Assembly (NCBI RefSeq): GCF_001713355.1
Contig: NZ_CP016448.1
Coordinates: 1,984,001 to 2,048,000, forward strand
DNA length: 64,000 bases
Direction: 5' to 3'
Origin: Methyloversatilis sp. RAC08
Lineage (GTDB): Bacteria; Pseudomonadota; Gammaproteobacteria; Burkholderiales; Rhodocyclaceae
The translations under genes and the position numbers were made by a program. Numbering within the stretch: the stretch's first letter is position 1; every line of letters starts with the position of its first letter. Below are positions 41,501 through 56,979 of this stretch, in pieces. The notes beneath the pieces are model-generated. The model made no database searches. It saw nothing but the letters and a program-made list of their open reading frames with translations, and had not been told where the DNA came from.

Positions 41501-42343
41501 ATGCTCCGATTGCGCGCATGGCTGTGCGTCGCGCTGTGCGCGGTGCTGTCGATGCAGGCCTCACAGGCTGCGCCGCCGGCACTGATGCACGCGCAGCGCC
41601 ATCACGACGGCATCGATCCGGCCGCCTACTGGGTCAGCGAAAAGCTGGACGGGGTGCGCGCGGTGTGGGACGGGCGGGTGCTGCGCTTTCGCAGCGGGCG
41701 GCCGATCGCGGCGCCGGCCTGGTTCACCGCGTCGCTGCCTGCGGTGCCGCTGGATGGCGAACTGTGGATCGCCCGTGGCCGCTTCGATGTGCTGTCCGGT
41801 GTAGTGCGGCGCGATGTGCCGGACGATGTCGACTGGCAGCCGGTGCGCTACCTGCTGTTCGACCTGCCTGGTGCGCCGGGCGACTTCAGCCAGCGCCTCG
41901 CGCGCCTGAAGCACATCGTCGCCGACGCGGGTCTGCCCTGGCTGCAGGCCGTGCCGCAACAACGTGTGGCCGACCGGGCCGAACTGGCATCACGCTTCGC
42001 TGAGGTGGTCGCCGGTGGCGGCGAAGGACTGATGCTGCATCGGGCCGACGCGCTGTGGACGGCCGGGCGCAGCGATGCCCTGCTCAAGCTCACGCCCTTT
42101 TTCGATGCCGAAGCAGCCGTGACCGGCCACGTGCCGGGCAAGGGCCGTCACCGCGGCCGGCTCGGCGCGCTCGAGGTGGTGGATGCAGAAGGACGGCGTT
42201 TTCGCATCGGCAGCGGCTTCAGCGACGCGTCGCGCATCGCGCCGCCGGCCATCGGCACACAGGTGACCTACCGCTATCGCGAACTGACCGCCCGCGGCCT
42301 GCCGCGCTTCCCGGTGTTCGTTCGGGTGCGCGACCTGCCGTAG
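41501..42343 (+). CDS. Secreted ATP-dependent DNA ligase (LigE-like)
   Basis: A 280-residue minimal ATP-dependent ligase with a signal peptide (1-23, ending SQAA). The catalytic lysine is K48 in SEKLDGVRAVWDG (motif I). Motif III is PLDGELWIARGRFD, motif IV EGLMLHRAD and motif V ALLKLTPF. An OB-fold lies at the C-terminus. Such periplasmic ligases seal nicks in DNA taken up or present outside the cytoplasm and are common in naturally competent betaproteobacteria. That role is inferred. The repeat cluster begins just after the stop. Confidence 0.9.
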   Translation: MLRLRAWLCVALCAVLSMQASQAAPPALMHAQRHHDGIDPAAYWVSEKLDGVRAVWDGRVLRFRSGRPIAAPAWFTASLPAVPLDGELWIARGRFDVLSGVVRRDVPDDVDWQPVRYLLFDLPGAPGDFSQRLARLKHIVADAGLPWLQAVPQQRVADRAELASRFAEVVAGGGEGLMLHRADALWTAGRSDALLKLTPFFDAEAAVTGHVPGKGRHRGRLGALEVVDAEGRRFRIGSGFSDASRIAPPAIGTQVTYRYRELTARGLPRFPVFVRVRDLP

Positions 42344-42350
42344 CGTTTCC

Positions 42351-42720
42351 TGTGGGAGCTTCCGCTGTGGGCGCGGCGATGCACGGTTGGCCCTGCATGG
42401 CCAACCGGCTCCGCGGGCGGCGAGCAGTGCTCGCCGAAACCCCCGCTCCGCCCTTGTGGGTGCGGCGGCCCCGCCGCGATGCGCACTTCGCGCTGCGATG
42501 GTCGTTGCACCGATCGCGACGGGGCCGTCGCTCCCAGAGGCGCTGCGCTTGAGGGCTTGCTGTGGTCTCCGAGGGTGCTGCCCTTGTGGGAGCGGCGGCC
42601 TCGCCGCGATGCGCACTTCGCGCTGCGATGGTCACTGAACCGATCGCGACGGGGCCGTCGCTCCCACATCCCTGCGCTGAGGTTTCGCTGTGGCCGTTGG
42701 TGGCGCCTCCCACAGGTCCC
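42351..42720. repeat. Cluster of REP-like palindromic elements
   Basis: Two near-identical complete elements in the same orientation, at about 42455-42536 and 42585-42668. Each starts TGTGGG(A/T)GCGGCGGCC and ends GGGGCCGTCGCTCCCA, with a shared middle GCGCACTTCGCGCTGCGATGG. Partial arms occur at 42351 (TGTGGGAGCT) and about 42710. The arms are less symmetrical than at 3.8 or 55 kb. The cluster fills the gap between the ligase and cytochrome c peroxidase genes, which end toward it. Confidence 0.85.
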
Positions 42721-42751
42721 CCGCTTCCACAGGGGGCCTGTGTCTCCGCGC

Positions 42752-43750
42752 TCAGTTCTTCGAGAACGGCGTCGGACGCGGCGTGCTGTCGGCGGATGGC
42801 GGCAGAATGGGCAGCGTGAAGCTGGGTTGGTCACCGGTCAGCGTCTTCAGAAAGGCGACGATGCGCGCGTTTTCGTCCGGCGAGAATTTCCGGCCCAGTT
42901 GCAGCCGGCCCATGATGGTGACCGATTCGGCCAGCGTATTGGCCGCACCGTCGTGGAAGTAGGGGTAGGTCAGTTCCACGTTGCGCAGCGTCGGCACCTT
43001 GAAGTTGAAACGGTCGATGTCCTGGCCGGTCACCGCCGAACGCCCCTCGGCCGAACTCGTGGATTTGTACGGCTCGACCAGCCCCATCTTCTGGAACGTC
43101 GCGCCACCGACCGCCTCACCGTTGTGGCAGGCAATGCAGCCGCTGTCCTTGAACAGCTCGTAGCCGGCAAGCTCCTGCGCGGTGAGCGCGTCGTCCCGGC
43201 CGAGCAGCCACTGGTCGAAGCGCGAGTTCGGCGTCACCAGCGTCTTTTCGAATTCGGCGATCGCCAGTGTCACCTGGTCGATGTCGATCTTCTCCTTGCC
43301 GAACACCTGGCGGAATTCGCGCACATAGCCCGGAATGGTGCCCAGTACGCTGATGGCCAGCGTGTGCGAGAACGCCATTTCACCCGGGTTGGCGATCGGC
43401 CCGCCCGCCTGTTCCTTCAGATCGGCCGCACGGCCGTCCCAGAACTGCGCGACGTTCAGGCTCGAATTGAGCACCGTCGGTGCATTGATCGGCCCTTGCT
43501 GCCACTTGTCGCCGATCGAGGTCGGAATGTTGTCGGTGCCGCCCATCGACAGGTTGTGACAGGAATTGCAGGAGATGAAGCCGGACTTGGACAGACGCGG
43601 GTCGAAGTAGAGCTTCTTGCCCAGTTCGACCATGCCCAGATTGATGTTCTGCGGCGGACGGATGGGCTTGATGGGCTCCTCCCTGAAGGCCTGGCTGACC
43701 GCCAAACCCGACACCGCGGCGATCGCCGCGGCCAGAAGAATGCGTTTCAT
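42752..43750 (-). CDS. Diheme cytochrome c peroxidase
   Basis: A 332-residue periplasmic protein of the CcpA/MauG family that reduces H2O2 with electrons from small c-cytochromes. A signal peptide spans about 1-21. Haem sites are CNSCH (61-65, peroxidatic) and CIACH (205-209, electron transfer). FDPRLSKSG and the conserved PTLRNVELTYPYFHDGA are present. A palindrome and an FNR-like box lie upstream. Confidence 0.94.
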   Translation of the reverse strand: MKRILLAAAIAAVSGLAVSQAFREEPIKPIRPPQNINLGMVELGKKLYFDPRLSKSGFISCNSCHNLSMGGTDNIPTSIGDKWQQGPINAPTVLNSSLNVAQFWDGRAADLKEQAGGPIANPGEMAFSHTLAISVLGTIPGYVREFRQVFGKEKIDIDQVTLAIAEFEKTLVTPNSRFDQWLLGRDDALTAQELAGYELFKDSGCIACHNGEAVGGATFQKMGLVEPYKSTSSAEGRSAVTGQDIDRFNFKVPTLRNVELTYPYFHDGAANTLAESVTIMGRLQLGRKFSPDENARIVAFLKTLTGDQPSFTLPILPPSADSTPRPTPFSKN

Positions 43751-43792
43751 GCTGGGTACTCCCCTGTAAATGACTGACTACAGTGTGGCCAA

Positions 43793-43823
43793 TCTGGACT
43801 CAGTCCAGACTGATCGAGGTCAA
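43793..43823 (-). promoter_or_regulatory. Palindrome and FNR-like box upstream of cytochrome c peroxidase
   Basis: A perfect dyad, TCTGGACT-C-AGTCCAGA (43793-43809), lies 43 bp from the start. Adjacent, reading leftward, TTGACCTCGATCAG (43823-43810) matches the FNR/Anr consensus TTGAT-N4-ATCAA in 8 of 10 positions. Oxygen-responsive control is common for this peroxidase family. Confidence 0.5.
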
Positions 43824-43844
43824 CGATGCTTTCGGTTAGCGCAG

Positions 43845-44762
43845 TCACGCTGATGTGGCGAGAAAGGCCATCAGCGCAGCGCGCGCCTGTGGCAGTGCCG
43901 CGCTCAGGTCATGTTCGGCATCGAGGGCAATCAGCGGCGTACCGGGCCGCGCGGCCACCAGTCGGTGCGCTTCGGTGATCGGCACGGTGCTGTCGCGCAG
44001 ACCGTGCGCCAGCAGCACCGGGCAGCGGACTTTCGGCAATGTGGCCAGCGGCGCGATGTCGTCGAAGCGCGCGCCGATCACTCGCTGCACCTGGCGCGTG
44101 ATCAGCGCACCGAACGGTCGCCACGGGATGCCCATCGCCGAGAGATAGCGCCGCATCATGTCCTGCGGGTGCGCGAAGGCGGACAGGCTGATGACCGCCT
44201 GCGCACGCGGGCGGCGGCTGGCTTCCAGCAGCACGGCGGCGGCGCCGACCGAATGGCCGATCAGCGACAGCCGCGCCGCATCGACGTCGCAGCGCGCGCC
44301 GAGCCAGTCCAGTCCGGTGGCCACATCGTCGGCGAAGCGCGGCAGCGACATGAAGTCAATGTCATCGCTGTCGCCGTGCCCGCGTGCATCAAGCAGCAGC
44401 ACGGCATGGCCGGCCTCGTGCAACGGGCGTGCGAGCGGCAGCATCATCGACGCATTGGCGCCCCAGCCGTGCATCACCAGTGCGGCCGGTGCGCGCGCTC
44501 CGGTGCCGGCCGGAACGAACCAGCCGTGCAGGCGCCGGCCATCGCAGGCCGTCAGCCATACGGTGACCGCCGGCAGTCCGCAGTCCGCCGGCGTGGTCCC
44601 ATGCGGCTCGCGGGTCGCCGCGAAGCGTCGCAGCAGCCAGCGTCTGAACGGCGACGCGTGGATGTCGACACGCTTCGCGACATGCGACGCTGTCGGTGGC
44701 TCCGGCGCGATTCCATTCCGGCAGGTGGCTCTGATCAAGGCAAACACAGGGTCTTGGGTCAT
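43845..44762 (-). CDS. Alpha/beta hydrolase
   Basis: A 305-residue hydrolase. The oxyanion region is VMHGWGANA, the nucleophile elbow GHSVG (Ser near 170), the acid probably D in AHGLRDSTVP and the histidine in DAEHDLSAALP. The N-terminal segment FRRWLLRRFA may be membrane-associated. It is a serine esterase or peptidase of unknown substrate, similar to dienelactone-hydrolase/BAAT-like enzymes. It stands alone. Confidence 0.88.
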   Translation of the reverse strand: MTQDPVFALIRATCRNGIAPEPPTASHVAKRVDIHASPFRRWLLRRFAATREPHGTTPADCGLPAVTVWLTACDGRRLHGWFVPAGTGARAPAALVMHGWGANASMMLPLARPLHEAGHAVLLLDARGHGDSDDIDFMSLPRFADDVATGLDWLGARCDVDAARLSLIGHSVGAAAVLLEASRRPRAQAVISLSAFAHPQDMMRRYLSAMGIPWRPFGALITRQVQRVIGARFDDIAPLATLPKVRCPVLLAHGLRDSTVPITEAHRLVAARPGTPLIALDAEHDLSAALPQARAALMAFLATSA

Positions 44763-45145
44763 GGGCTGGACAAGCGATCGAGAAAATGTCGGCGGACTGC
44801 GCGCAAGGATCGGTCCGCTGAATCCGTCCCGGCACCGTTGCCGCCGCCGGGCACGTTTCCCCTATCAAGATGCGTGCCGTGCGCGACGGCTCGTTCTTGC
44901 TGCGCAAAAGACGCATCCATTCATGGACTTGGGGCTGCGCCCGCCGACTGCATGCGTCCTGCCGCGCTGCCAGACGACTGCCCAAGATGGCAGCACCACT
45001 GCCAAAGTCAGTGCGTCCGCCCGGCCAGCTTGCCGCGCCCAGCGCTCATGCAACTGATTTGAATGGCTTTTCCCCCTCCTGCCGCATCTGGCACGGCACT
45101 TGATAGGACAGTGCACACACTCCTTCTCGCCCTGCCGAACCCATC
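44763..45145. other. Intergenic region upstream of the MBL-fold gene
   Basis: 383 bp between divergent genes. The only clear signal is the sigma-54-type element at 45089-45104. No protein-like small ORF was seen. Confidence 0.6.
45089..45104 (+). promoter_or_regulatory. Sigma-54-like promoter of the MBL/DsrE genes
   Basis: TGGCACGGCACTTGAT: a consensus -24 TGGCACG, four bases, then TTGAT at -12 (consensus TTGCW, so the C is replaced by A). It is the same form as the element at 51024. Predicted start near 45115, about 30 nt before the GTG. Confidence 0.5.
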
Positions 45146-45826
45146 GTGTATTTCCATCCGATAGAAGAACCCGATTCCGGACAGATCGGCTACCTGCTCG
45201 CCGATGGCGACACGCAGGACGCCGTCATCATCGATCCGCCGCCGCGCAGCACCGAACTGCTGCTTGCGTTGCTGGCCGAGCGCCGCCTGCGCTTGAGTCA
45301 CGTGCTGCGCACCCATGTCCATGCCCGCCAGCCGCTGAACTGCAGCGCGCTGAGCGAGCTGACCGGCGCCATGCTGGTGATCGCCGACGGTGTTGGCATC
45401 AATGCCGCCTGCCCGGCGAAGGTCGAGCGCGCGGTGCACGGCAGCACGCTGGTGTTCGGCCAGGAGGTGCTGCGCGTGCTGGCCACGCCCGGCCACACCG
45501 CGCACTGCGTGAGCTATCTGTGGCGTGATCGCCTGTTCTGCGGCGATGCCTTCGATCTGGGCAGTTGCGCCGATGGCGACGATGACGCCGATGCCGGCCT
45601 GCTGTACGACAGCCTGACCTGCCGCCTTTTCATGCTGCCGGAACAGACCCTGGTGTTTCCGGCCCATCCGCTGCGCGGCCGCCGCGTGGCCACGCTGGGC
45701 GAACTGCGCCTGCGCAGCGCACCGCTGCTCGCCGGCAGTCGCGACGCCTTCATCACCGACATGACATCCAGACGCGCCGCACATCTGCGGCACGCTCGTC
45801 CTTCGCCGACGGCGAAGCGGCGCTGA
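45146..45826 (+). CDS. MBL-fold protein with degenerate metal site (persulfide dioxygenase-like)
   Basis: A 226-residue metallo-beta-lactamase-fold protein similar in outline to ETHE1-type persulfide dioxygenases. The metal motif HxHxDH is degraded to H57-V-H59-A-R61-Q62. TPGHTAHCVSY (H117) and the D134-containing CGDAFDLGSC remain, and FPAHP stands where a metal histidine is expected. It may bind one metal or none, or have become a regulator. GTG start. A DsrE-like gene follows, and a sigma-54-like promoter precedes. Confidence 0.8.
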   Translation: MYFHPIEEPDSGQIGYLLADGDTQDAVIIDPPPRSTELLLALLAERRLRLSHVLRTHVHARQPLNCSALSELTGAMLVIADGVGINAACPAKVERAVHGSTLVFGQEVLRVLATPGHTAHCVSYLWRDRLFCGDAFDLGSCADGDDDADAGLLYDSLTCRLFMLPEQTLVFPAHPLRGRRVATLGELRLRSAPLLAGSRDAFITDMTSRRAAHLRHARPSPTAKRR

Positions 45827-45865
45827 CGCCCCACCCCTTCCAGTCACAACCCCGGAGACCTACCC

Positions 45866-46282
45866 ATGAAGAAAGCACTCGCCACTCTCGCACTCGCCAC
45901 CCTGTCGACCGTCGCACTGGCCGACAAGCAGGCCGTCACCGTCATCCTCAGTGCCGAAAGCGGCATGACCCAGGGCATGGCCCTGGTGCTGGCCAACCAG
46001 ATGCAGGAACAGGGCGGACAGGTCGACATCCTGCTGTGCGACAAGGCGGGCGACCTCGCGCTGAAGGGCGCCGGCGGCACGCCGCTCAAGCCCAAGGACG
46101 TCACGCCCGCGCAACTGCTGGATGCAGCCATGAAGAAGGGCGCCACCGCGTCGGTGTGCGCGATCTATCTGCCGAACACCGGCCACAAGCCGGACATGCT
46201 GAAGGACGGCATCGCACCGGCCAAGCCGGATGCCATGGGTCGTGCGCTGATGGAGCCGAACCGCAAGGTCGTGGCGTTCTGA
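45866..46282 (+). CDS. Periplasmic DsrE-like protein
   Basis: A 138-residue protein with a Sec signal (1-19, ending LALA). The mature part resembles the DsrE/F fold: AVTVILSAESGMTQGMALVL, VDILLCDKAGDLAL (a conserved Cys) and ASVCAIYLPNTG (a second Cys). DsrE-like proteins carry or transfer persulfide sulfur. Export to the periplasm and linkage to the MBL gene 39 bp upstream suggest handling of sulfane sulfur outside the cytoplasm. That function is inferred. Confidence 0.78.
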   Translation: MKKALATLALATLSTVALADKQAVTVILSAESGMTQGMALVLANQMQEQGGQVDILLCDKAGDLALKGAGGTPLKPKDVTPAQLLDAAMKKGATASVCAIYLPNTGHKPDMLKDGIAPAKPDAMGRALMEPNRKVVAF

Positions 46283-46453
46283 TTTTCGCGGTGGGCGGGC
46301 GGGCGCCTGTCGCCCGCCCGCACTGATACCTTGTCCTCTTCGGCGTCGGCCGTCGCGGATCTGCATCTGCGTGTCCGACAGCCAGCCTCACGCACTCGCC
46401 GCCATCCACGCGGTCTTCCACCTGTGGCGTGCCTGCCGCAAGCGAGGTGTGAA

Positions 46454-46642
46454 ATGACCATTCCAATTGATGTTCTCGAGGCCGAAGTCCTGAGCCTCCC
46501 TGAAGCAGAACGCGTCAAGCTCATCGACCGGCTCAACTCGAGCCTGGAGAAAGACCCCGAGTGGGCGACCGCCTGGTCGAAAGAGGCCGATTGTCGGGAG
46601 GCTCGCATCGCCAGCGGCGAAGCGGCACAAGTGCGCGGCTAG
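46454..46642 (+). CDS. Addiction-module protein (antitoxin-like, no toxin found)
   Basis: A 62-residue acidic protein resembling TIGR02574 addiction-module antitoxins: LEAEVLSLPEAERVKLIDRL followed by a short helical tail, EWATAWSKEADCREARIASG. These usually precede a RelE/ParE toxin. No such gene follows in the next 80 bp before the HNH gene. It may be an orphan antitoxin or act in trans. Confidence 0.78.
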   Translation: MTIPIDVLEAEVLSLPEAERVKLIDRLNSSLEKDPEWATAWSKEADCREARIASGEAAQVRG

Positions 46643-46724
46643 GACGTAGTGGCGCGTATCCGCTTACGGCGTCTGCCCCGGAAGACAGTGTAGCGAGCGG
46701 CGATCTGAACGCTTCGTTGTACCG

Positions 46725-47615
46725 ATGACCGGCGCGTTAGCTACACTCATTGCCACGTCATCAGTCCCCGGGGAGCCGGCAGCAGCAGCTTCGGTTGCAC
46801 TGCCTGAAATCGTCATGCGTGAAGGCCGTTGGACAAGAGATCAACTGAAGCTTGCCTTTCATTTGTATTGCCAGCTTCCATTCGGAAAGCTGCATTCGCG
46901 CAATAACGAGGTCATGCAGTTGGCCAGCCAGATCGGCAGAACGCCGTCAGCCGTGGCCATGAAGCTTGTGAACTTCGCCAGCCTTGATCCGGCGATCACG
47001 AGTACGGGCCGAAAGGGCCTTGATGGCGCGTCTGCGCTCGACCGCGAGATCTGGGCGGATTTCCATGCTGACTGGGAAAGTCTGGCACTTGAGTGCGAGC
47101 GACTGCGCAAGCAATTCGTGGCGGATGCTGCGGTCGACCCGATGGAAGAGGAGGCGCTACAGGGCTTCGAGATTCCGGACGATTTCACCGGCGAATCCCG
47201 CCGCGTCCTGACCGAACAGCGCATCAAGCAGAACTTCTTCCGCCGCGCTGTGCTGGCCAGTTATCGCGGTCGATGTTGCATGTCCGGGGTTTCCGAACCG
47301 CGGCTGCTCATTGCAAGCCATATCGTGCCGTGGAAGGCGGACAAGGCAAACCGGCTCAATCCGGGCAACGGGCTGTGTCTTTCCGCCATTCATGATCGTG
47401 CTTTCGACCAAGGGCTCATTTCGCTGAGCGACGACTGGAAAGTCCTGCTGTCGGACAAGCTGCGCCGATCCGATGAGCCCTTCGTCGAGTCCGTCTTCAA
47501 ACCGCTCGAAGGCCGCACGATCGAGCTACCGCATCGCTTTGTGCCTGAGGCCGCCTTTCTTCGAAGGCACCGCAGCGAGGTATTTCTCGACAACCGCTGG
47601 GCAGGTTTCGCATGA
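46725..47615 (+). CDS. HNH endonuclease
   Basis: A 296-residue protein. The C-terminal HNH domain (about 175-260) is LIASHIVPWKADKANRLNPG, then NGLCLSAIHDRAFDQGLI, with H199, N215 and H223 as likely ligand or catalytic residues. An N-terminal helical domain (WTRDQLKLAFHLYCQLPFGK) is found in restriction-like HNH proteins. It is probably a DNA endonuclease of a restriction or anti-phage system. Its stop overlaps the next ATG (ATGA), so the small downstream protein is a candidate partner. The start may be at 46725 or an internal GTG/ATG. Confidence 0.85.
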   Translation: MTGALATLIATSSVPGEPAAAASVALPEIVMREGRWTRDQLKLAFHLYCQLPFGKLHSRNNEVMQLASQIGRTPSAVAMKLVNFASLDPAITSTGRKGLDGASALDREIWADFHADWESLALECERLRKQFVADAAVDPMEEEALQGFEIPDDFTGESRRVLTEQRIKQNFFRRAVLASYRGRCCMSGVSEPRLLIASHIVPWKADKANRLNPGNGLCLSAIHDRAFDQGLISLSDDWKVLLSDKLRRSDEPFVESVFKPLEGRTIELPHRFVPEAAFLRRHRSEVFLDNRWAGFA

Positions 47616-47974
47616 ATGAGTACAGCATTTTCGACTACCTCTACCGCGATGCAGGCAACTACAAATCGTGGCGCAGCCTGTTGCTCGAAGGATGCGCGAC
47701 TTCAGCCGACATCGAGGCAGTCAAGGCAAGCCTTGACCGTGGTGAGTTCTTCATCGCCGAACAGCTCGGAATTCCGGCCGCGTATGCGAAGCCGGAGGAA
47801 GGCAAGAGCACGCCGACCGAGGATGACCACGTCTGGCATGAGTTTTCCGAACTGAGACCTGCACAGGCAGACGAGTTAGCTGGCGAGCCGTGGGGAGCGG
47901 TCGCTGAACTCGTGATGCGGTTCAGGTCGGTGACGCGATGGGATGAGCGGCTGTCGCCTCATTGGGATTTGTGA
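47612..47974 (+). CDS. Hypothetical protein translationally coupled to the HNH endonuclease
   Basis: A 120-residue acidic soluble protein of no family I recognise (begins NEYSIFDYLYRDAGNYKSW; ends WDERLSPHWDL, rich in Trp, Glu and Asp). Its ATG overlaps the HNH stop by four bases. Possible roles include an immunity or modulator protein for the nuclease, which is speculation from context. Confidence 0.75.
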   Translation: MNEYSIFDYLYRDAGNYKSWRSLLLEGCATSADIEAVKASLDRGEFFIAEQLGIPAAYAKPEEGKSTPTEDDHVWHEFSELRPAQADELAGEPWGAVAELVMRFRSVTRWDERLSPHWDL

Positions 47975-47982
47975 GGTCATCC

Positions 47983-48024
47983 GCGCAAGCGCTGAGCGGG
48001 AGGACGACTGCTCAGCGCTTGCGC
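47983..48024. terminator. Strong bidirectional hairpin between convergent genes
   Basis: A perfect 15-bp inverted repeat, GCGCAAGCGCTGAGC / GCTCAGCGCTTGCGC, around a 12-nt loop. It sits between the 3' ends of the HNH-linked gene and brnA. There is no T run, so it may act as a factor-dependent terminator or RNA stabiliser. Confidence 0.65.
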
Positions 48025-48045
48025 AATCTCATCCTCAGCGCTCCA

Positions 48046-48351
48046 TCAGTCCTTTCGCTCGCCGGGGTGCGTTTTCAGCCAATCGCGGAGCGCACTGTTG
48101 ATACGCGTCTGCCAGCCCACTCCGCCATCCTTGAATGCCTCAAGAATGTCCGCATCCAGGCGAATGTTGACGTGCGCCTTCGGCTGGAGCGTTACGGGTC
48201 GTCCTCGCTTGGGCTTCAGCATTTCTTCAGCCACGTCTTCGCCCATCAACTCGGGCAGCACGCTTTTCGCGGGCCGCGCTTTCGCGAACCATTCCTCGGT
48301 GGCCTCGGGTGCATCGGCGTCCAGGCATTCAGGGTTGGGTTTGCGCTTCAT
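48046..48351 (-). CDS. brnA: BrnA family antitoxin
   Basis: A 101-residue ribbon-helix-helix antitoxin. The C-terminal domain HVNIRLDADILEAFKDGGVG, then WQTRINSALRDWLKTH, is characteristic of BrnA. It neutralises BrnT and represses the operon. Its start lies 23 bp inside the end of brnT, the usual toxin-first order of this system. Confidence 0.92.
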   Translation of the reverse strand: MKRKPNPECLDADAPEATEEWFAKARPAKSVLPELMGEDVAEEMLKPKRGRPVTLQPKAHVNIRLDADILEAFKDGGVGWQTRINSALRDWLKTHPGERKD

Positions 48352-48604
48352 AACGAGTCCTTTCGCGTTTGTTGGCCCGGCGCAGGCTGATCACGTGCAG
48401 TGCGCCCTCGCGTGGTGTGAATACCAGCATGCACAAGTGCTCATCGATGAAGCCCAGCGCCTGAAAACGCCGCTCCGGGTAAGCTTGCCGAGTGTCCTCG
48501 ACGATGAGGGCGACGCTCCAGTCGAACTGTTGGGCAAGCGCGAATGGCATGCCGCGCTCTTGATCATTACGCTCACTTTTGGCAGGGTCGTAGGTCAGTC
48601 GCAC
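48329..48604 (-). CDS. brnT: BrnT family toxin ribonuclease
   Basis: A 91-residue RelE-like RNase toxin. Conserved pieces are YDPAKSERNDQERGMPFALA, the catalytic region PERRFQALGFIDEHLCMLVF and ISLRRANKRERTRYE. It inhibits translation until bound by BrnA. GTG start at 48604. The promoter's -10 lies only 6 bp before this codon, so the mRNA may be leaderless. Confidence 0.92.
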   Translation of the reverse strand: MRLTYDPAKSERNDQERGMPFALAQQFDWSVALIVEDTRQAYPERRFQALGFIDEHLCMLVFTPREGALHVISLRRANKRERTRYEAQTQP

Positions 48605-48638
48605 CGATTTATTGTATCCACAAAAATCGGATTGTCCA
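48604..48638 (-). promoter_or_regulatory. brnTA promoter with inverted-repeat operator
   Basis: Reading leftward: TGGACA (-35, 48638-48633), 16 bp, TACAAT (-10, 48616-48611). An inverted repeat CCGATTT / AAATCGG (48604-48610 and 48624-48630) brackets the -10, a likely BrnA operator. Confidence 0.7.
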
Positions 48639-48692
48639 CTGGGCCTTCGCCCGCCTCGCGACCACTGCCGCGATCGACTTAGGTTCCCGGCT

Positions 48693-49316
48693 TCAGGCCG
48701 CGGTCGCGCCGTCGTCCCCGATCAGCAGCCGCGTATCCGACAGCCACGCATGCGGTGGCACTTCGAGATTGGTGGGCGCTGGCTGGTTGCGGAACACGCG
48801 TCCTGCGAGGTCGAAGGTCGAGCCGTGGCAGGGGCACAGGAAGCCGCCCGGCCAGTCGTCGCCCAGACCGGAACTGCTGCCGGTGTCGATCTTTTCGGTC
48901 GGCGAGCAGCCGAGGTGGGTGCAGATGCCGATCACCACCAGATAGTCGGCGCGGCGCGCGCGCTCGCGATTGGCGGCATAGCCGGGCTGCTGTGCTTCGG
49001 CCGATGTGGCGTCGGCCAGACGTGCTTCGTGCCGCTCGAGCGCGGCCAGCATTTCGGGCGTCCGGTGCAGCACCCAGACCGGCTTGCCGCGCCATTCGAC
49101 GGTCATCATGCTGCCCGGCGCCAGCTTGCTCACGTCGGCTTCGACCGGCGCGCCGGCGGCACGCGCCCGATCGGACGGCGCGAAGCTGGACAGGAAGGGG
49201 ACGGCGGTCGCCGCGACGGCAATTGCGCCGACGCCGGTGGTGGCGATCAGCAGGCGGCGGCGGTCGGCGCACATCGCGTGCGGAAGGAGGGCGGGCAGTT
49301 CGGTCGTGTGGGTCAT
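48693..49316 (-). CDS. Rieske iron-sulfur protein (orphan, bc1-type)
   Basis: A 207-residue protein with a single N-terminal membrane anchor and Tat-like ADRRRLLIATTG (17-28). The [2Fe-2S] ligands are C132, H134 (CTHLGC) and C161, H164 (CPCHGS), with disulfide cysteines C137 and C163. It resembles the ubiquinol-cytochrome c reductase Rieske subunit, but no cytochrome b or c1 gene is nearby. A sigma-54-type promoter lies upstream. It may serve a separate quinol or sulfur-linked electron path. Confidence 0.9.
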   Translation of the reverse strand: MTHTTELPALLPHAMCADRRRLLIATTGVGAIAVAATAVPFLSSFAPSDRARAAGAPVEADVSKLAPGSMMTVEWRGKPVWVLHRTPEMLAALERHEARLADATSAEAQQPGYAANRERARRADYLVVIGICTHLGCSPTEKIDTGSSSGLGDDWPGGFLCPCHGSTFDLAGRVFRNQPAPTNLEVPPHAWLSDTRLLIGDDGATAA

Positions 49317-49409
49317 GGCACGGGCTCCGGTGAAGCATGCGGAAAAGGACGAAGCCGGCGACCCGGGTCACTGCCTGCCCCCGGTTGCCGGTTTCTGTCA
49401 CTGGACATT

Positions 49410-49425
49410 CGCAATCCGCGTGCCA
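49410..49425 (-). promoter_or_regulatory. Sigma-54-type promoter of the Rieske gene
   Basis: On the reverse strand, TGGCACGCGGATTGCG: GG and GC separated by ten bases, matching TGGCACR-N4-TTGCW except the last base. Predicted leader about 85 nt. Confidence 0.55.
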
Positions 49426-49551
49426 CTCGGCACTTTCACCGCAGCGCGCCGTTTGCGGTCGATGCATGTGCCAGCCGGAACTGCCGCGCTGCCAGCGCAG
49501 TCAGGGCTGCCTGCCAGCGATGGCGCAGTCGCACCGCTCGCAGCGCCGGTT

Positions 49552-50895
49552 TCAGTCCTGCGCGATGCCCAGCGCGCGCAGCCGGCGGTACAGCGTGCGT
49601 TCGCTGATGCCGAGCTTGCGGGCGAGGTCGTGGCGGCTGCCGGTGTGGTTGCGCACCACGCGCGCGAGCATCTGACGCTGCGCCTCTTCCAGATCGACCG
49701 CGCCCTCGCCCTCCACCGGCAGACCGTCTGTCGCGTCACGGCGGGCAGGGCCTGCGCAGCCGATGCAGATTTCCTCATCGAGATGCTGCGTGCCGATCTC
49801 TTCGCCGTCGCACAGCAGGCTGGCGCGTTCCAGCACATTGCGCAGCTCGCGCACATTGCCCGGGAAGGCATAGGCCTGCAGCGCGCGCATGGCCGCCGGC
49901 GCCACGGTCAGCCGACGGTTGGGTGCGACGCGTGCCAGCAGCGACTCGACCAGCAGCGGCAGGTCTTCGCGCCGTTCGCGCAGCGGCGGCACGACGATCG
50001 GGAAGGCGTTCAACCGGTAGTAGAGGTCCTGCCGGAAGCGGCCTTCGGCAATCATCTGCTTCAGCGGCCGGTGCGTGGCCGACACCAGGCGGACGTCGGC
50101 GCGCATCAGTTCGGTGGAGCCGACGCGGCGATAGGTGCCGGTTTCCAGCAGGCGCAGCAGCTTCACCTGCATGGTCAGCGGAATGTCGCCCAGCTCGTCG
50201 AGGAACAGCGTGCCGCCGCTGGCCGCCTCGATCAGACCTGCCTTGCGTGCGATGGCGCCGGTGAAGGCGCCTTTTTCGTGGCCGAACAGCTCGCTTTCGA
50301 ACAGGGTGTCCTGCAGGCCGGAACAGTCCACCGCAACGAAGGGGCGGTCGGCGCGCCGGCTGGCGTCGTGCACCGCCTGCGCCACCAGTTCCTTGCCGCT
50401 GCCGGATTCGCCCTGCAGCAGCACGCTGGCGTCCGAAGGCGCCACCCGCGCGACCAGTTCGAGCATGCGCTGGAAGGCGGGCGCGCGGCCGATCAGGCCA
50501 CTGCGTTCGGACACGCCGCGCGCCACCTTCAGCGGCTCCATCTTTTCGATGAACCACGCGATGTCGCCGCTGCCGTTGCGCACCGGTGTGAGTTCGATGT
50601 TCACGTACTCCTCGCCGCGCGGCGTCTGGTGCAGATGCAGCACGCGCTCGCGCTGTTCCGATTCCAGGCTGCGCGCCAGCGGGCAGGCCTCGCCGGCGCG
50701 GTCGCACGGCACGCTGTAGTGGTGCGACACGTCGTAGCAGGTGCGCCCGACCACGCTGCGACCGCCGCCGTACTGCGCGCGGTAAGCCTTGTTGGCGGCG
50801 ATCACGCGGTAGTCGCGGTCGAACAGGATGTGCGGCTCGGGCGCCAGTTCGATGAAGGACACCAGTTCGGGCAGCGGACGCAGTTCGTCTGACAT
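49552..50895 (-). CDS. Sigma-54-dependent activator (PAS, AAA+, Fis-type HTH)
   Basis: A 447-residue enhancer-binding protein. A PAS domain (about 10-120) holds cysteines C53, C64 and C71 ([11 protein letters not shown]), possibly a redox or sulfur sensor. The AAA+ domain has Walker A GESGSGKE (162-169), the sigma-54 contact GAFTGA (209-214) and [13 protein letters not shown]. The C-terminal Fis-like HTH is [20 protein letters not shown]. It hydrolyses ATP to open sigma-54 promoters. It lies between the Rieske and SQR genes, both with sigma-54-like promoters. Repeats upstream of its start may be its binding sites. Confidence 0.93.
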
Positions 50896-50899
50896 GGCA

Positions 50900-50945
50900 C
50901 TGACAGTTCTGACGTGATCGGGCTGTCAGTCTGTGTCGCTGTCAG
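50900..50945. promoter_or_regulatory. Candidate enhancer (UAS) repeats between activator and SQR genes
   Basis: CTGACAG at 50900-50906 and CTGTCAG at 50923-50929 and 50939-50945 form inverted and direct repeats 80-125 bp upstream of the sigma-54-like element. They sit directly upstream of the activator's own start. The 356-bp interval also holds a palindrome ATCCATATGGAT at 50991-51002, possibly an IHF-like or repressor site. Confidence 0.5.
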
Positions 50946-51023
50946 TTCCAGGGTCAAGGTCTACCGATAGGGTAGTTCGACAAATCACTCATCCATATGG
51001 ATTTTTGATCTTTGTCATCGTGC

Positions 51024-51039
51024 TGGCACGAGACTTGAT
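51024..51039 (+). promoter_or_regulatory. Sigma-54-like promoter of the SQR operon
   Basis: TGGCACGAGACTTGAT: consensus -24, four bases, TTGAT at -12 (C changed to A). Predicted start near 51050, leaving a leader of about 200 nt before the SQR ATG. Confidence 0.55.
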
Positions 51040-51251
51040 ATGTCATGGATACGGCCAAGCCGTGCGCCTTGAGTCTGGCGGACCCGAAACCCGGATGTCT
51101 CTCCGGGCGTCGGCGTCCGCTCGCACGGAATGCTGCGGCGAGCAGGTTTTTCGGCTCTGGCCTGCTTGATCGGCGACGCGCTCTCATGGCCGCGTCTGCA
51201 GGCCTTTGCGTGAGCCATTCCGACAAGGCGAAAAGCCGGGAGGAGACATTC

Positions 51252-52607
51252 ATGAAATACGGTAAACCGGAGGTCGCTGTACCAACTGCGCTGCCGGACA
51301 TCGGCCGGCGCCGCTTCATGCTGCGCGCCTCGGCACTGCCGCTGGGCGCTGCGGCACTTGGCGCTGCAACACCGCGCACGGCGCGGGCGGGGGTGAAAAC
51401 CTCGGCGCACATCGTCATCGCCGGCAGCGGGCTGGGCGGCGTGGCGATCGCCAATCGCCTTTCGCGCGAACTCGACGGCGCGAAGATCACGATTGTCGAC
51501 CGCAAGGAAATCCACAACTACCAGCCGGGCTACACGCTGGTGGCGACCGGCATCTGGCCGGTGGACAAGGTGAGCGACCGCAACGCCGACCTGCTGCCCG
51601 GCCGCGTCGAATGGGTGAAGGACATGGCGGCCGGGTTCGACCCCGACGCCAGCACCCTGATCACCGAAGGCGGCCAGCGCATCCGCTATGACTATCTTGT
51701 GGTGGCGACCGGCCTGCATCTGGATTACGCGCAGATCGACGGCATGGATGTGTCGGCGATCGGGGCCAACGGCCTGACCAGCGTCTATCCGGGTCCGCAG
51801 GCGGCGCAGGCGACCTGGCTGGCGATGGATGCCTTCCGCCGACAGGGTGGCGAGGCGCTGATGACGCTTCCGGCGACGCCGCTCAAGTGCGCCGGCGCGC
51901 CACTGAAGATGACCTTCATGCTGGCGGACCGCCTGCGCGAAGCGGGCACGCGCGCGTCGTCGAAAGTGAGCTTCCACTCCGCGCTGGACAACATATTCAG
52001 CGTCAAGCCGGTGAATGACGACGTGCTGCGCCGCTGGGCGGACCTGGACGTGCCGGTCACCTTCAACAGCAAGCTGGTGGCGATCGACATCGGCACCCGC
52101 CGCGCCACCTTCCTGACGCCGGAGGGCGAGCGCAACGAACTGGGCTACGACTTCATCCACGTGGTGCCGCCGATGCGCGCACCGGACGCGGTGAAGAACA
52201 GTCCGCTCGCCTGGCAGGACGGTCCGTTCGCAGCGGGCGGCTGGCTGGAAGTGGACAAGGAAACGCTGCGCCACCGCCGCTATCCGAATGTGTTCGGGCT
52301 GGGCGACATTAATGGCACGCCGCGCGGCAAGACGGCGGCGACGATCAAGAAGAGCGCACCCATCGTCGCGCGCAACCTGATCGACGTGATCGCCGGCGGT
52401 GAGCCGTCGCAGCGCTTCGACGGCTACACCTCCTGCCCGTTGCTGCTGCGCGAAGGCTCGGCGCTGCTGGTCGAATTCGACTACGAAGGCCGGCTGGTAC
52501 CTTCACTGCCCATGATCGAACCGCTGCAGGACAGCTACTTTGCCTGGTTGATGAAATACCGCCTGCTCAAGCCCGCCTACATGGCGGTGGCCAAGGGCAG
52601 GGTGTGA
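51252..52607 (+). CDS. Sulfide:quinone oxidoreductase-like flavoprotein, Tat-exported
   Basis: A 451-residue FAD disulfide oxidoreductase. A twin-arginine signal IGRRRFMLRASALP (18-31) predicts periplasmic placement. The FAD motif is AGSGLGG (57-63). Redox cysteines are C213 in TPLKCAGAPLK and C395 in GYTSCPLL, the pattern of SQR and flavocytochrome c sulfide dehydrogenase. It probably oxidises sulfide to sulfane sulfur and passes electrons to quinone or a cytochrome. AGGAGA precedes the ATG at 51252. The longer open frame upstream lacks conservation. Sulfide as substrate is inferred. Confidence 0.9.
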   Translation: MKYGKPEVAVPTALPDIGRRRFMLRASALPLGAAALGAATPRTARAGVKTSAHIVIAGSGLGGVAIANRLSRELDGAKITIVDRKEIHNYQPGYTLVATGIWPVDKVSDRNADLLPGRVEWVKDMAAGFDPDASTLITEGGQRIRYDYLVVATGLHLDYAQIDGMDVSAIGANGLTSVYPGPQAAQATWLAMDAFRRQGGEALMTLPATPLKCAGAPLKMTFMLADRLREAGTRASSKVSFHSALDNIFSVKPVNDDVLRRWADLDVPVTFNSKLVAIDIGTRRATFLTPEGERNELGYDFIHVVPPMRAPDAVKNSPLAWQDGPFAAGGWLEVDKETLRHRRYPNVFGLGDINGTPRGKTAATIKKSAPIVARNLIDVIAGGEPSQRFDGYTSCPLLLREGSALLVEFDYEGRLVPSLPMIEPLQDSYFAWLMKYRLLKPAYMAVAKGRV

Positions 52608-52617
52608 GGAGAACGAC

Positions 52618-52986
52618 ATGTACGAGATATGGCTGGGCCTGAATATCGTGTTCGAACTGGCGCTGACCGCCCTGCCCTGGATAGGGGGCGCGGCGGCGGT
52701 CTGGATCGCGCTCATGTCGGCGGCGCTGCTCCGCCGACACGCCCACTGGCGCGAAGCGCTCCCGGCATCGCTGGTGATCGGTGCGACCTTTGCTGCGCTG
52801 GGGCTCTGGCTGGTGCCGTTGCTGACCCGATCCTCGATCGGCGAAATGGGCTACTGGGTCGACTGGGTCAATCTGATCGGCCTGTCGGTGGCAGTCGGCG
52901 TTCTGGTGTTCGCATTCGTCTGGCCGCTGCTGACCGCGGTGTCCGGCCCGCGCCATGACACACACACGCCAGACGCACACGCATGA
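52618..52986 (+). CDS. Small integral membrane protein in SQR operon
   Basis: A 122-residue protein with about three transmembrane helices and a short His/Thr-rich tail (HDTHTPDAHA). No family assigned. It starts 10 bp after the SQR-like gene with GGAG upstream. It may anchor the exported flavoprotein or mediate quinone contact; context is the only evidence. Confidence 0.8.
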   Translation: MYEIWLGLNIVFELALTALPWIGGAAAVWIALMSAALLRRHAHWREALPASLVIGATFAALGLWLVPLLTRSSIGEMGYWVDWVNLIGLSVAVGVLVFAFVWPLLTAVSGPRHDTHTPDAHA

Positions 52987-53145
52987 AGGCGGCTGCAGGT
53001 CCGCGCGGCTCGGTATGCAAGCGTCTCCGGGCCCTGCGCAGAACACCCCCGCGAGTTCCGTCGGTGATCGCAGTCACTGGCAGGCACGCGCGAATGGCGC
53101 ACGATGAAACCATGAACCCGCACTGACCCCTGGAGAAGACACATC

Positions 53146-53694
53146 ATGAAAAGACTGTTCCTCGCTGCCGCGCTGTCGCTGGCAAGTCTCACCGCATCCG
53201 CCGTCGACATCGCGATTTCCGCGGCCGACGCGCACGCCGCCGTGCAGAAGGCCGACAGCAAGGTGCTGCTGGTCGATGTGCGCGATCCGGTCGAAATCAT
53301 GTTCGTCGGCTTCACCGACGCGGTGCACGTGAACATTCCCTACCTGATCGTCGACCGCACGAAGTGGAATGCCGAAAAGGGCGTGTTCAAAACCTTCCAG
53401 AATCCCGACTTCGCGGCGCAGATCAAGGCCGAACTGGACAAGCGCGGGCTGGGCATCGATGCCGAAGTCATCACCCTGTGCCGATCCGGCAGCGAACGCG
53501 GCGAACCGAGCGCAGCCTTTCTGCGCGCCAATGGCTTTCCGAATGCGCGTTTCGTCGAACACGGCTTCCAGGGCGCGCAGATCAAGGACGGTCCGCAGAA
53601 GGGCTTCCGCCTGCAGAACGGCTGGCAGAACTCCGGCCTGCCGTGGAGCATGAAGATGAATCCGGACAAGATGTACCGCAGCGACCGGCCCTAA
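53146..53694 (+). CDS. Periplasmic rhodanese-like sulfurtransferase
   Basis: A 182-residue protein with a Sec signal (1-19) and one rhodanese domain: VLLVDVRDPVEIMFVGFTDA, then the active loop LCRSGSERG with C112. It transfers sulfane sulfur or acts on persulfides. It follows the SQR and membrane-protein genes by 159 bp on the same strand and precedes a glutaredoxin-DsbD fusion, so sulfur handling in the periplasm is likely. GGAG lies upstream. Confidence 0.9.
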   Translation: MKRLFLAAALSLASLTASAVDIAISAADAHAAVQKADSKVLLVDVRDPVEIMFVGFTDAVHVNIPYLIVDRTKWNAEKGVFKTFQNPDFAAQIKAELDKRGLGIDAEVITLCRSGSERGEPSAAFLRANGFPNARFVEHGFQGAQIKDGPQKGFRLQNGWQNSGLPWSMKMNPDKMYRSDRP

Positions 53695-53739
53695 CAACAG
53701 CGCGATAATCGGGCGACCCTTCAGACGGCCTCTCGTCCG

Positions 53740-54858
53740 ATGAGCTTCGCCCGCGCCGGAACATCCCTGCTGCATCTGCTGCTGTACGTGCTGCTGGCCG
53801 TGTCCACGACGGCCGTCCGCGCCAGCGACGCCGACAGTACCCTGCATGTCTATGTGCAGCGCGGTTGTCCGCACTGCGCCGAGGCAAAGCGCTTTCTCGA
53901 TGGCGAACAGTCCGGGCGGCCCGGACTGCACATCGTCTATCACGACGTGATCGCCGATCAGGCGGCGCGCGATGAACTGATCGCGCTGTCGCAGCAGGCC
54001 GGCATCTGGCCGCCCGGCGTGCCCACCTTCGTGCTGGGCGGGCGGGTGATCAGCGGCTTCGAGGGCGGGCCGGCGCTGCTCGCCTTCATCGCCGACACCG
54101 GCCGGCCCCCGGCGTCCGCCTCACCGCACCTGCCGCTGATCGGCGAACTTGATGTGGCGCGGCTGGGCCTGCCGGCATTCACGCTCGCGCTCGGCCTTCT
54201 GGACGGCTTCAACCCTTGCGCGATGTGGGTGCTGCTGTTCCTGCTGTCGCTGCTGGTGCGCCTGCAGGATCGTCGGCGGATGGCGCTGATCGCAGGCGTC
54301 TTCGTGCTGGTCAGCGGTGCGGTGTACTTCGCCTTCATGGCGGCCTGGCTCAACCTGTTTCTGGCGGTTGGATTGACGCCGCTGGTGCGCGGCGTACTGG
54401 CCTTGCTGGCGCTGCTCATCGGTGCGATCAATGTGAAGGATTTCTTCGCCTTCGGCCGCGGCTTCTCGCTGTCCATCCCCGAGTCGGCCAAGCCCGGCCT
54501 GTACGCGCGCATGCGTCGCGTCGTGCAGGCACCGTCATTGCCGGTGTCGTTGATGTCGGTGGCCGCGCTCGCCGTGCTGGTGAACCTGATCGAGCTGCTG
54601 TGCACGGCAGGCCTGCCGGCGCTCTACACCTCGGTGCTGGCCCAGCATGCGCTGAGCCCATCGGCGCACTACGGCTATCTGGCGCTGTACATCGCCGGCT
54701 ACATCGCCGACGACGCGCTCATGGTCGGTACCGCTGTTGCCGCATTGGGCAGCGGCAAGCTCACCGAGCGCGGCGGCCGCCTGCTCAAGCTGGTCAGCGG
54801 TCTGGTGATGCTGGCACTCGGTGTGGTGATGCTGCTGCGCCCCGACTGGCTCGTCTGA
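53740..54858 (+). CDS. Glutaredoxin/thioredoxin domain fused to a DsbD/CcdA-like membrane domain
   Basis: A 372-residue fusion. An N-terminal signal segment is followed by a glutaredoxin-like domain with RGCPHC (C43, C46) and GVPTFVLGGRVISGF. Six or so transmembrane helices then carry C160 in GFNPCAMWVLL and C288 in LLCTAGLPAL, the paired cysteines of CcdA/DsbD proteins. It probably moves reducing equivalents across the inner membrane to periplasmic thiols. The order, periplasmic redox domain first, is not that of E. coli DsbD. Last gene of the presumed sulfur operon. Confidence 0.88.
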   Translation: MSFARAGTSLLHLLLYVLLAVSTTAVRASDADSTLHVYVQRGCPHCAEAKRFLDGEQSGRPGLHIVYHDVIADQAARDELIALSQQAGIWPPGVPTFVLGGRVISGFEGGPALLAFIADTGRPPASASPHLPLIGELDVARLGLPAFTLALGLLDGFNPCAMWVLLFLLSLLVRLQDRRRMALIAGVFVLVSGAVYFAFMAAWLNLFLAVGLTPLVRGVLALLALLIGAINVKDFFAFGRGFSLSIPESAKPGLYARMRRVVQAPSLPVSLMSVAALAVLVNLIELLCTAGLPALYTSVLAQHALSPSAHYGYLALYIAGYIADDALMVGTAVAALGSGKLTERGGRLLKLVSGLVMLALGVVMLLRPDWLV

Positions 54859-54869
54859 TCAGCAACTTC

Positions 54870-55095
54870 TGCGGGAGCGGCGATGCGTTGTGGGAGCGGC
54901 CCCTGTGGGAGCGGCGGCGGTTTTGTGGGAGCGGCGGCGGTTTTGTGGGAGCGGCGGCCTCGCCGCGATACGCGCTCTGCACAACGATGGTCGCTGCACT
55001 ATCGCGGCGAGGCCGCCGCTCCCACAGCAGGCTCCCACAGCAGGCTCCCACAGCAGGCTCCCACAGCAGGCTCCCACAGCAGGCTCCCACAGCAC
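54870..55095. repeat. REP-like palindrome with two tandem arrays
   Basis: A perfect 26-bp inverted repeat at 54944-54969 and 55001-55026, identical in its arms to that at 3756-3839. On the left, units reading TGTGGGAGCGGCGGCGGTTT repeat twice at 20-bp spacing. On the right, six 13-bp units of GCTCCCACAGCAG run from 55018 to 55095. It lies between the convergent DsbD-like gene and lipA and could act as a terminator. It has no spacer-repeat structure of CRISPR. Confidence 0.9.
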
Positions 55096-55112
55096 AAGCG
55101 CCGGCGGAGGCG

Positions 55113-56075: not shown

Positions 56076-56713
56076 GGCGGTGTCGTGCCTGTCGGATAGA
56101 GGGCGCGCTGTAGCGCGTCGGTCAGTTGCCGGCAGATCGCCTCCGGTGGGAGATCGATGCCGAGGTCGCGCGTCTGTGTCACGCGCAATCCACTGTAGCC
56201 GCACGGGTTGATCGCGGCAAACGGTGAAAGATCCATAACGACGTTGAGCGACACGCCGTGATAGGTGTGGCCGTGCTTCACGCGCAGGCCGAGCGCGGCG
56301 ATCTTGGCGTCGTCACCGGCCGGGCCGACATAGACGCCGGGCGCACCGGCGCGCCGCCGGGCGTCGACGCCGTGGCCGGCCAGCAGGTCGATGACCGCCT
56401 GCTCGATGCGGTTCACCAGTTCGCGCACGCCGAGGCCGGCACGCTTCAGGTCGAGCAGCGTGTAGATCACCACCTGGCCGGGGCCGTGATAGGTGATCTG
56501 GCCGCCGCGGTCGGATTCGACCACCGGCACGCCGATGTCGCGCAGCAGGTGTTCGCGCTTGCCGGCCAGCCCGAGCGTGAACACCGGCGGGTGCTCGACC
56601 TGCCAGAACTGGTCAGGCAGATGTTCCGCTGCGGCGCGCGCGTTGTACGCCTTCATCGCGTCGAATACCTCGCTGTAGCCGGCCAATCCGAGCGGCACGA
56701 CCTGTGCGGTCAC
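56072..56713 (-). CDS. lipB: Octanoyltransferase
   Basis: A 213-residue LipB that transfers octanoyl from acyl carrier protein to lipoyl domains. [12 protein letters not shown] (69-80), K137 in AKIAALGLR and the catalytic C171 in INPCGYSGL are present. GTG start overlapping the ybeD stop by four bases; it in turn overlaps lipA. Confidence 0.96.
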
Positions 56714-56970: not shown

Positions 56971-56979
56971 GTCAGCGTG

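What the first reader, a model, noticed from the sequence alone, without database searches (positions are those of the whole stretch)
45089..51039. Sigma-54 regulon for periplasmic sulfur oxidation
Elements with TGGCACG-N4-TTGAT precede the MBL/DsrE genes (45089) and the SQR gene (51024), and TGGCACG-N4-TTGCG precedes the Rieske gene (49410). The matching activator gene is among them. The products (MBL, DsrE, Rieske, SQR, rhodanese, thiol-redox fusion) form a coherent but unusual periplasmic set. Sigma-54 control of such a set is not something I know as standard.
Basis: partly seen in the sequence, partly recalled or inferred. Interest (0 to 1): 0.75.

Follow-up and report, generated by a model that had tools for sequence, protein, structure and literature searches.

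The report
FisR sulfide regulon with orphan Rieske
The three promoter sites look real and belong to a known type of bacterial sulfide switch (FisR with sigma-54); what looks new is that the switch also seems to control a spare respiratory-chain subunit and, in relatives, a bd-type oxidase.

Summary
TGGCACG-N4-TTGAT occurs twice in the window and three times in the 3.94 Mb genome; the third copy lies inside a coding frame. All three elements are conserved in related species (7 of 7, 7 of 7, 6 of 6). The activator is FisR-type: PAS-AAA-Fis with three cysteines conserved in 20 of 20 loci. Sigma-54/FisR control of sqr and pdo is already published, so the central novelty claim fails. Beyond the finding: (1) a FisR-family upstream site, TGNCA-N4-TGNCA, exact at 26 of 43 FisR-divergent promoters (0.05 by shuffling); the window promoters have only one-mismatch copies. 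(2) cydA (bd oxidase) is divergent from fisR in 4 of 7 genus loci and 19 of 95 others; the window has lost cydPAB by deletion, leaving the promoter on sqr. (3) The Rieske gene is an orphan bc1-type isoform: 0 of 9 fisR-linked Rieske genes, but 25 of 25 others, lie beside cytochrome b. Likely role: sulfide-induced remodelling of quinol oxidation. The metallo-beta-lactamase has no signal peptide and a degenerate metal site, so "all periplasmic" is wrong. Expression, sulfide response and function were not testable. New variant of a known kind.

The parts
44979..44992 (+). Predicted FisR site TGCCCAAGATGGCA, 110 bp upstream of the -24 element of the MBL promoter
   Evidence: one mismatch to TGNCA-N4-TGNCA; upstream block partly conserved in the genus
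45089..45104 (+). Sigma-54-type promoter TGGCACGGCACTTGAT of MBL-DsrE
   Evidence: conserved 7 of 7
45146..45826 (+). Metallo-beta-lactamase-fold protein (226 aa, GTG start), persulfide-dioxygenase-like, HxHxDH degenerate (HVHARQ), no signal peptide
   Evidence: Pfam Lactamase_B; PDB 9rhq, 4ysb, ETHE1; alignment
45866..46282 (+). DsrE-like small protein (138 aa) with a leader; Cys58 and Cys98 invariant in 8 rows
   Evidence: alignment A2; no family match
48693..49316 (-). Orphan bc1-type Rieske protein (207 aa)
   Evidence: TIGR01416 211.8 bits against cut-off 97.4; no cytochrome b beside it
49410..49425 (-). Sigma-54-type promoter TGGCACGCGGATTGCG of the Rieske gene
   Evidence: conserved 6 of 6
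49490..49503 (-). Predicted FisR site TGACTGCGCTGGCA, 78 bp upstream of the Rieske -24 element
   Evidence: one mismatch
49512..49525 (-). Predicted FisR site CGCCATCGCTGGCA, 100 bp upstream of the Rieske -24 element
   Evidence: one mismatch
49552..50895 (-). fisR: PAS, sigma-54 AAA and Fis HTH activator (447 aa) with Cys53, Cys64, Cys71
   Evidence: Pfam; cysteines 20 of 20 loci and invariant in 17 rows
50901..50914 (+). Predicted FisR site TGACAGTTCTGACG, 123 bp upstream of the fisR-divergent -24 element
   Evidence: one mismatch; the block is largely kept in the genus
51024..51039 (+). Sigma-54-type promoter TGGCACGAGACTTGAT, now in front of sqr
   Evidence: conserved 7 of 7
51089..51105 (+). 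Junction of a deletion of about 3.25 kb that, compared with L035, removed nearly all of cydP, cydA, cydB and part of a ybgE-like frame
   Evidence: both sides align to L035
51252..52607 (+). Sulfide:quinone oxidoreductase, human-like, with an RRRFML (Tat-like) leader
   Evidence: PDB 6mp5, E 1.1e-74, both cysteine motifs aligned
52618..52986 (+). Small membrane protein, at most weakly DUF5368-like
   Evidence: below the Pfam cut-off
53146..53694 (+). Rhodanese with a leader
   Evidence: PF00581, E 7e-7
53740..54858 (+). Glutaredoxin domain joined to a membrane part (DsbD-like by eye only)
   Evidence: PF00462, E 6e-7

Best explanation
This is a FisR-type regulon for sulfide and sulfane sulfur. 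Sulfane sulfur modifies Cys53/Cys64/Cys71 of the FisR PAS domain (inferred from published FisR). FisR, bound about 80-125 bp upstream at TGNCA-N4-TGNCA-like sites (predicted), then activates RNA polymerase with sigma-54 at three promoters: MBL-DsrE, Rieske, and SQR-membrane protein-rhodanese-glutaredoxin fusion (promoters shown by sequence, transcription not shown). The probably exported SQR passes electrons from sulfide to quinone, and the rhodanese, DsrE-like and glutaredoxin proteins handle the persulfide formed (inferred). Quinol is re-oxidised through cytochrome bc1 carrying the regulon's own Rieske isoform and, in relatives that still have it, through a dedicated cytochrome bd (inferred from linkage).
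For: Promoters: exact matches above chance, rare in the genome, conserved as footprints. Activator: FisR architecture and cysteines; one rpoN gene; C. metallidurans CH34 has a 52% identical protein divergent from an intact dioxygenase and SQR. Family: strict promoter facing away from fisR in 43 of 95 other loci, towards it in 0, shuffles 0.16; upstream site exact in 26 of 43, shuffles 0.05. Content: SQR nearest human SQOR, MBL nearest persulfide-dioxygenase-type structures. Respiratory link: cydA divergent in 19 of 95 and 4 of 7 genus loci; orphan Rieske in 6 of 7 fisR-positive and 0 of 6 fisR-negative genus genomes, and in 3 loci outside the genus.
Against: No expression, binding or sulfide data. 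Two of three -12 boxes read GA. The window's upstream sites have one mismatch each, and 5 of the 24 other genome sites also have a one-mismatch copy within 220 bp, so a single such copy is weak evidence. 60 of 95 FisR loci have none of the marker genes and 52 of 95 lack the strict promoter; other divergent genes include molybdopterin oxidoreductases, response regulators and hydrolases. A. baumannii FisR lacks the three cysteines yet responds to sulfide, so the cysteines do not define all FisR proteins. The MBL has lost DH of HxHxDH. The Rieske group has only 85/81 support. This genome no longer has the fisR-linked bd oxidase.
Confidence: 0.72

Rival explanations
1. The activator is FisR-like but answers another reactive signal (nitric oxide, cyanide, oxidants); the sulfur genes belong to a wider respiratory-stress set.
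For: Cysteine-based PAS sensing is not specific in principle; bd oxidase also helps against cyanide and nitric oxide (PMC11837568, listing only); divergent genes differ between FisR loci.
Against: SQR, persulfide-dioxygenase-type MBL and rhodanese recur beside fisR; published FisR proteins respond to sulfide or sulfane sulfur.
Confidence: 0.15
2. The regulon is right, but the orphan Rieske is not a bc1 subunit: it is a separate periplasmic redox protein or a remnant with redundant function.
For: No cytochrome b beside it in 9 of 9 fisR-linked cases. In Rubrivivax and Rhodospirillum an orphan Rieske is described as redundant with the one in the bc1 cluster (PMC6256036, passage).
Against: It scores well above the bc1 Rieske equivalog cut-off, keeps both cluster motifs, has its own conserved promoter and recurs beside fisR outside the genus.
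Confidence: 0.35
3. The elements are chance matches or serve another of the genome's sigma-54 activators.
For: With two mismatches allowed there is no excess; the genome has 17 strong activator-domain matches.
Against: Exact matches exceed chance, are conserved in the genus, and the 51024 element lies in the fisR-divergent gap where such promoters recur in other genera.
Confidence: 0.04

Closest known systems
FisR with sqr-pdo in Cupriavidus (C. pinatubonensis JMP134, Li et al. 2017, seen only as cited; C. metallidurans CH34 locus L182)
   Same: PAS-AAA-Fis activator with the same cysteine spacing; SQR and dioxygenase-type MBL genes nearby; sigma-54 control
   Different: In the window the MBL motif is degenerate, the SQR has a Tat-like leader, and a Rieske, a DsrE-like protein, a rhodanese and a glutaredoxin fusion are added
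FisR of Acinetobacter baumannii (PMC7315123, abstract and passages)
   Same: Sigma-54 activator divergent from a sulfide-oxidation operon (pdo1-sqr-tauE)
   Different: It lacks the regulatory cysteines; cydAB is sulfide-induced but lies elsewhere, and the passages seen do not tie it to FisR
Orphan exchangeable Rieske of Rubrivivax gelatinosus (Ouchane et al. 2005, seen only as cited in PMC6256036)
   Same: A bc1-type Rieske gene outside the bc1 cluster
   Different: Here it sits beside fisR with its own sigma-54-type promoter; whether the Rubrivivax gene does was not tested
Persulfide dioxygenases (PDB 9rhq, 4ysb, ETHE1 4chl)
   Same: Best structural relatives of the MBL by sequence; first HxH, PGHT and GDA positions kept
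   Different: DH of HxHxDH is lost in all 7 genus rows

Membership tests
FisR sulfide-responsive activator | PAS - sigma-54 AAA - Fis HTH architecture | tested here: met
   PAS_4, Sigma54_activat, HTH_8
FisR sulfide-responsive activator | three regulatory cysteines (positions 53/64/71 in JMP134 are recalled, from no call) | tested here: met
   20 of 20 loci, invariant in 17 rows, spacing in 95 of 95 further loci
FisR sulfide-responsive activator | gene beside sulfide-oxidation genes | tested here: met
   SQR divergent, MBL within 6 kb
FisR sulfide-responsive activator | activation by sulfide/sulfane sulfur through sigma-54 | not testable with these tools
   needs expression and binding data
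sigma-54 promoter | GG at -24 and GC at -12 with standard spacing (consensus recalled) | tested here: inconclusive
   GG and spacing met in 3 of 3; GC met only at the Rieske promoter, GA in the two others; GA or GT also in 18 of 43 FisR-divergent promoters
bc1 Rieske subunit | equivalog model and both cluster motifs (CTHLGC, CPCHGS) | tested here: met
   TIGR01416 211.8 bits, cut-off 97.4; motifs
bc1 Rieske subunit | gene in the bc1 (petABC) cluster | tested here: not met
   no cytochrome b frame beside it
SQR, human-like | nearest solved structure and the two cysteine motifs | tested here: met
   6mp5, E 1.1e-74; CAGAP and TSCPL aligned
persulfide dioxygenase | HxHxDH metal motif | tested here: not met
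   HVHARQ in the window; DH lost in 7 of 7 genus rows
DsrE/DsrF family | match to a family model or solved fold | tested here: inconclusive
   no family match; model mean pLDDT 50.9

The most novel reading that the evidence does not exclude
Sulfide-triggered exchange of the Rieske subunit of complex III: a FisR/sigma-54 switch installs a dedicated Rieske isoform (and, in many lineages, a dedicated cytochrome bd), so that quinol made by SQR can be re-oxidised while the usual chain is poisoned. FisR would then be a controller of respiratory-chain remodelling under sulfide, acting through TGNCA-N4-TGNCA, and not only of sulfide detoxification.
Probability: 0.33. Interest if true: 0.78.

Novelty: new variant of a known kind. 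Interest (0 to 1): 0.55.

Why it matters
If right, bacteria use FisR not only to remove sulfide but also to re-wire quinol oxidation, bringing in a special Rieske protein and a bd oxidase. That would give orphan Rieske genes a testable role, and it gives a candidate DNA motif with which to look for FisR targets in genomes.

Tried and rejected
The two-mismatch promoter scan shows no excess and is not used. The third genome copy of TGGCACG-N4-TTGAT was rejected as a promoter because it lies in a coding frame. Further FisR targets in the genome: of the 24 sites other than the two in the window, 5 have a one-mismatch upstream site within 220 bp and none an exact one, so no further target is claimed. 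L248 was first counted as Rieske-linked; the match is 33 residues and the Rieske search finds none there, so it was dropped, leaving 3. Seven Rieske matches below the cut-off were left out of the tree. Origin of the orphan Rieske as a recent duplicate of the genus' own petA was rejected. The DsrE fold model was too poor to search with. Rfam found nothing in 42000-57000 at gathering thresholds. The scan of named genomes returned mostly unrelated activators; 78 of its 80 loci served as a rough control. A first cytochrome b check with motif PEWY found nothing, because these proteins read PVWY.
Full report
OBSERVATION. Exact TGGCACG-N4-TTGMW occurs twice in 64 kb against 0.04 expected, TGGCACG-N4-TTG three times against 0.32. 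In the 3,937,190-base genome TGGCACG-N4-TTGAT occurs three times: two are here, the third lies in a coding frame. The looser TGGCAYNNNNNTTGHW gives 26 sites in the genome against 5 for the reversed pattern. The genome has one rpoN and 21 activator-domain matches, 17 of them strong.

CONSERVATION. Seven of 13 genus genomes carry a close ortholog of the activator (84-100% identity over nearly the whole length); for the other six the listed matches cover the AAA and C-terminal part only. In the seven, diverged upstream DNA keeps the elements: MBL 7 of 7, fisR-divergent 7 of 7, Rieske 6 of 6.

THE ACTIVATOR IS FisR-TYPE. Domains: PAS, sigma-54 AAA, Fis HTH. Cys53, Cys64 and Cys71 are present in 20 of 20 loci and invariant in 17 rows; the spacing occurs in 95 of 95 further loci. 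FisR is described as sensing reactive sulfur through three conserved cysteines (PMC9774590, passage) and as a sigma-54 activator of sulfide-oxidizing genes (title of Li 2017 as cited; the paper is not held). The positions 53/64/71 for JMP134 are recalled. In C. metallidurans CH34 a 52% identical protein lies divergent from a dioxygenase with intact THVHADH and an SQR. In A. baumannii FisR controls pdo1-sqr-tauE but lacks those cysteines (PMC7315123, passages). So sigma-54 control of SQR is known.

FisR-FAMILY SITES. I compared 95 FisR loci outside the genus: 13, 2 from plasmid records, 80. They are not independent; several come from one genus. The strict promoter faces away from fisR in 43 of 95 and towards it in 0; the reversed pattern gives 0 and 1; base shuffles 0.16. 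Reading 13 of these loci suggested TGNCA-N4-TGNCA. Between fisR and the promoter it is exact in 26 of 43 (base shuffles 0.05) and within one mismatch in 39 of 43 (2.65); the other spacers from 0 to 10 give 0-6 exact. Of the 35 promoters not used to propose it, 23 have it exactly (my tally). Median distance 123 bp. The window promoters have one-mismatch copies at 110 bp (MBL), 123 bp (sqr), 100 and 78 bp (Rieske). This is modest: 5 of 24 other genome sites also have a one-mismatch copy. Papers holding both 'FisR' and 'inverted repeat': 3, by title on other subjects; whether Li 2017 reports a site I cannot say.

CYTOCHROME bd. In L035, L037, L038 and L039 the divergent promoter is followed by cydP-cydA-cydB (CydP, CydB and a sub-cut-off YbgE match for L035). 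A fisR-linked cydA exists in these 4 of 13 genus genomes (G002, G006, G010, G012). Another cydA elsewhere exists in 11 of 13, the window's included; G010 has only the linked one and G008 none. No sqr was found in the fetched stretches of L037 and L038. In the window, 50896-51088 aligns to L035 10342-10533 and 51106-51255 to L035 13785-13941, so about 3.25 kb is missing and sqr follows the promoter with a 213-nt leader. L034 shows nearly the same edges; L036 also lacks the genes, with another junction. Outside the genus cydA is divergent from fisR in 19 of 95 loci: the Pseudoalteromonas record and 18 loci in 13 genera and 11 families by the labels, six of them one genus; 14 of 19 have the strict promoter. 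In 78 other activator loci from many phyla (median 13.7 kb) none matches CydA, SQR, PDO, Rieske or DsrE; this control is rough, being of other taxa. Cytochrome bd is reported to sustain sulfide-resistant respiration (PMC4815019, title and abstract start), and sulfide raises cydAB in A. baumannii (PMC7315123, passages). Five papers hold both 'FisR' and 'cytochrome bd': in PMC7315123 the passages do not tie cydAB to FisR; in PMC8148161 and PMC9774590 I saw only the FisR passages; two I saw as listings. Within I found no report of FisR control of cydAB.

THE RIESKE. It scores 211.8 bits against a cut-off of 97.4 for the bc1 Rieske equivalog. All 13 genus genomes have one Rieske with a cytochrome b frame beside it; 6 of 7 fisR-positive genomes have a second, at the fisR locus, and 0 of 6 fisR-negative genomes have a second above the cut-off. 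Of 34 genes above the cut-off in the two searches, 25 of 25 not linked to fisR lie beside a frame with the cytochrome b motif PVWYF and 0 of 9 linked ones do. The 9 form one group in the tree, 85/81, not strongly supported; joining the genus' orphan and housekeeping copies as one clade is rejected, p 0.0007. Outside the genus the link recurs in L232 (own promoter-like element and exact sites), L241 (exact sites and, by eye, AGGCACG-N4-TTGAT) and L247, where a DsrE-like gene and a glutaredoxin fusion are near. Papers holding 'Rieske', 'sulfide' and 'sigma54': 1, by title on another subject.

OTHER PRODUCTS. The SQR is nearest human SQOR, E 1.1e-74, both cysteine motifs aligned, with an RRRFML leader that suggests Tat export (by eye). 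The MBL is nearest 9rhq, 4ysb and, further off, ETHE1; HxHxDH is degenerate in the genus but intact in L048, L045 and C. metallidurans. The DsrE-like protein has a leader and two invariant cysteines but no family match.

MECHANISM. Shown by sequence: promoters, activator type, recurring sites, linkage, deletion. Inferred: sulfane-sulfur sensing, transcription, persulfide handling in the periplasm, Rieske exchange. Against: no expression data; imperfect window sites; 60 of 95 FisR loci lack the marker genes; of 10 other divergent genes examined, two are molybdopterin oxidoreductases, two response regulators and two hydrolases, so FisR targets vary.

VERDICT. A member of the known FisR/sigma-54 sulfide regulons with variant content. 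What deserves follow-up is the Rieske isoform and the bd oxidase link.

Noticed in passing
48046-48604 (-): A BrnT/BrnA toxin-antitoxin pair (PF04365, PF14384) lies between the DsrE-like and Rieske genes.
   Followed up: partly
46725-47974 (+): An HNH_2 endonuclease-type gene and a small unknown partner lie inside the cluster; both recur at this place in L035, L036 and L038.
   Followed up: partly
54869-55094: Perfect short tandem repeats behind the cluster: a 13-bp unit 5.9 times and a 20-bp unit 2.8 times.
   Followed up: no
43845-44762 (-); L239 8759-9646; L254 5806-6717: An alpha/beta hydrolase gene lies next to the MBL promoter region here, and hydrolases of similar Pfam matches are the first divergent gene of two other FisR loci.
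   Followed up: no
L238 2670-5462; L242 8681-11479: FisR-divergent molybdopterin oxidoreductases with the promoter and exact upstream site: possible polysulfide or thiosulfate reductases under FisR.
   Followed up: no
L183 3475-8293: Pseudoalteromonas xiamenensis plasmid: fisR divergent from cydP, a fused or jointly annotated cydA-cydB frame, cydX and ybgE.
   Followed up: partly
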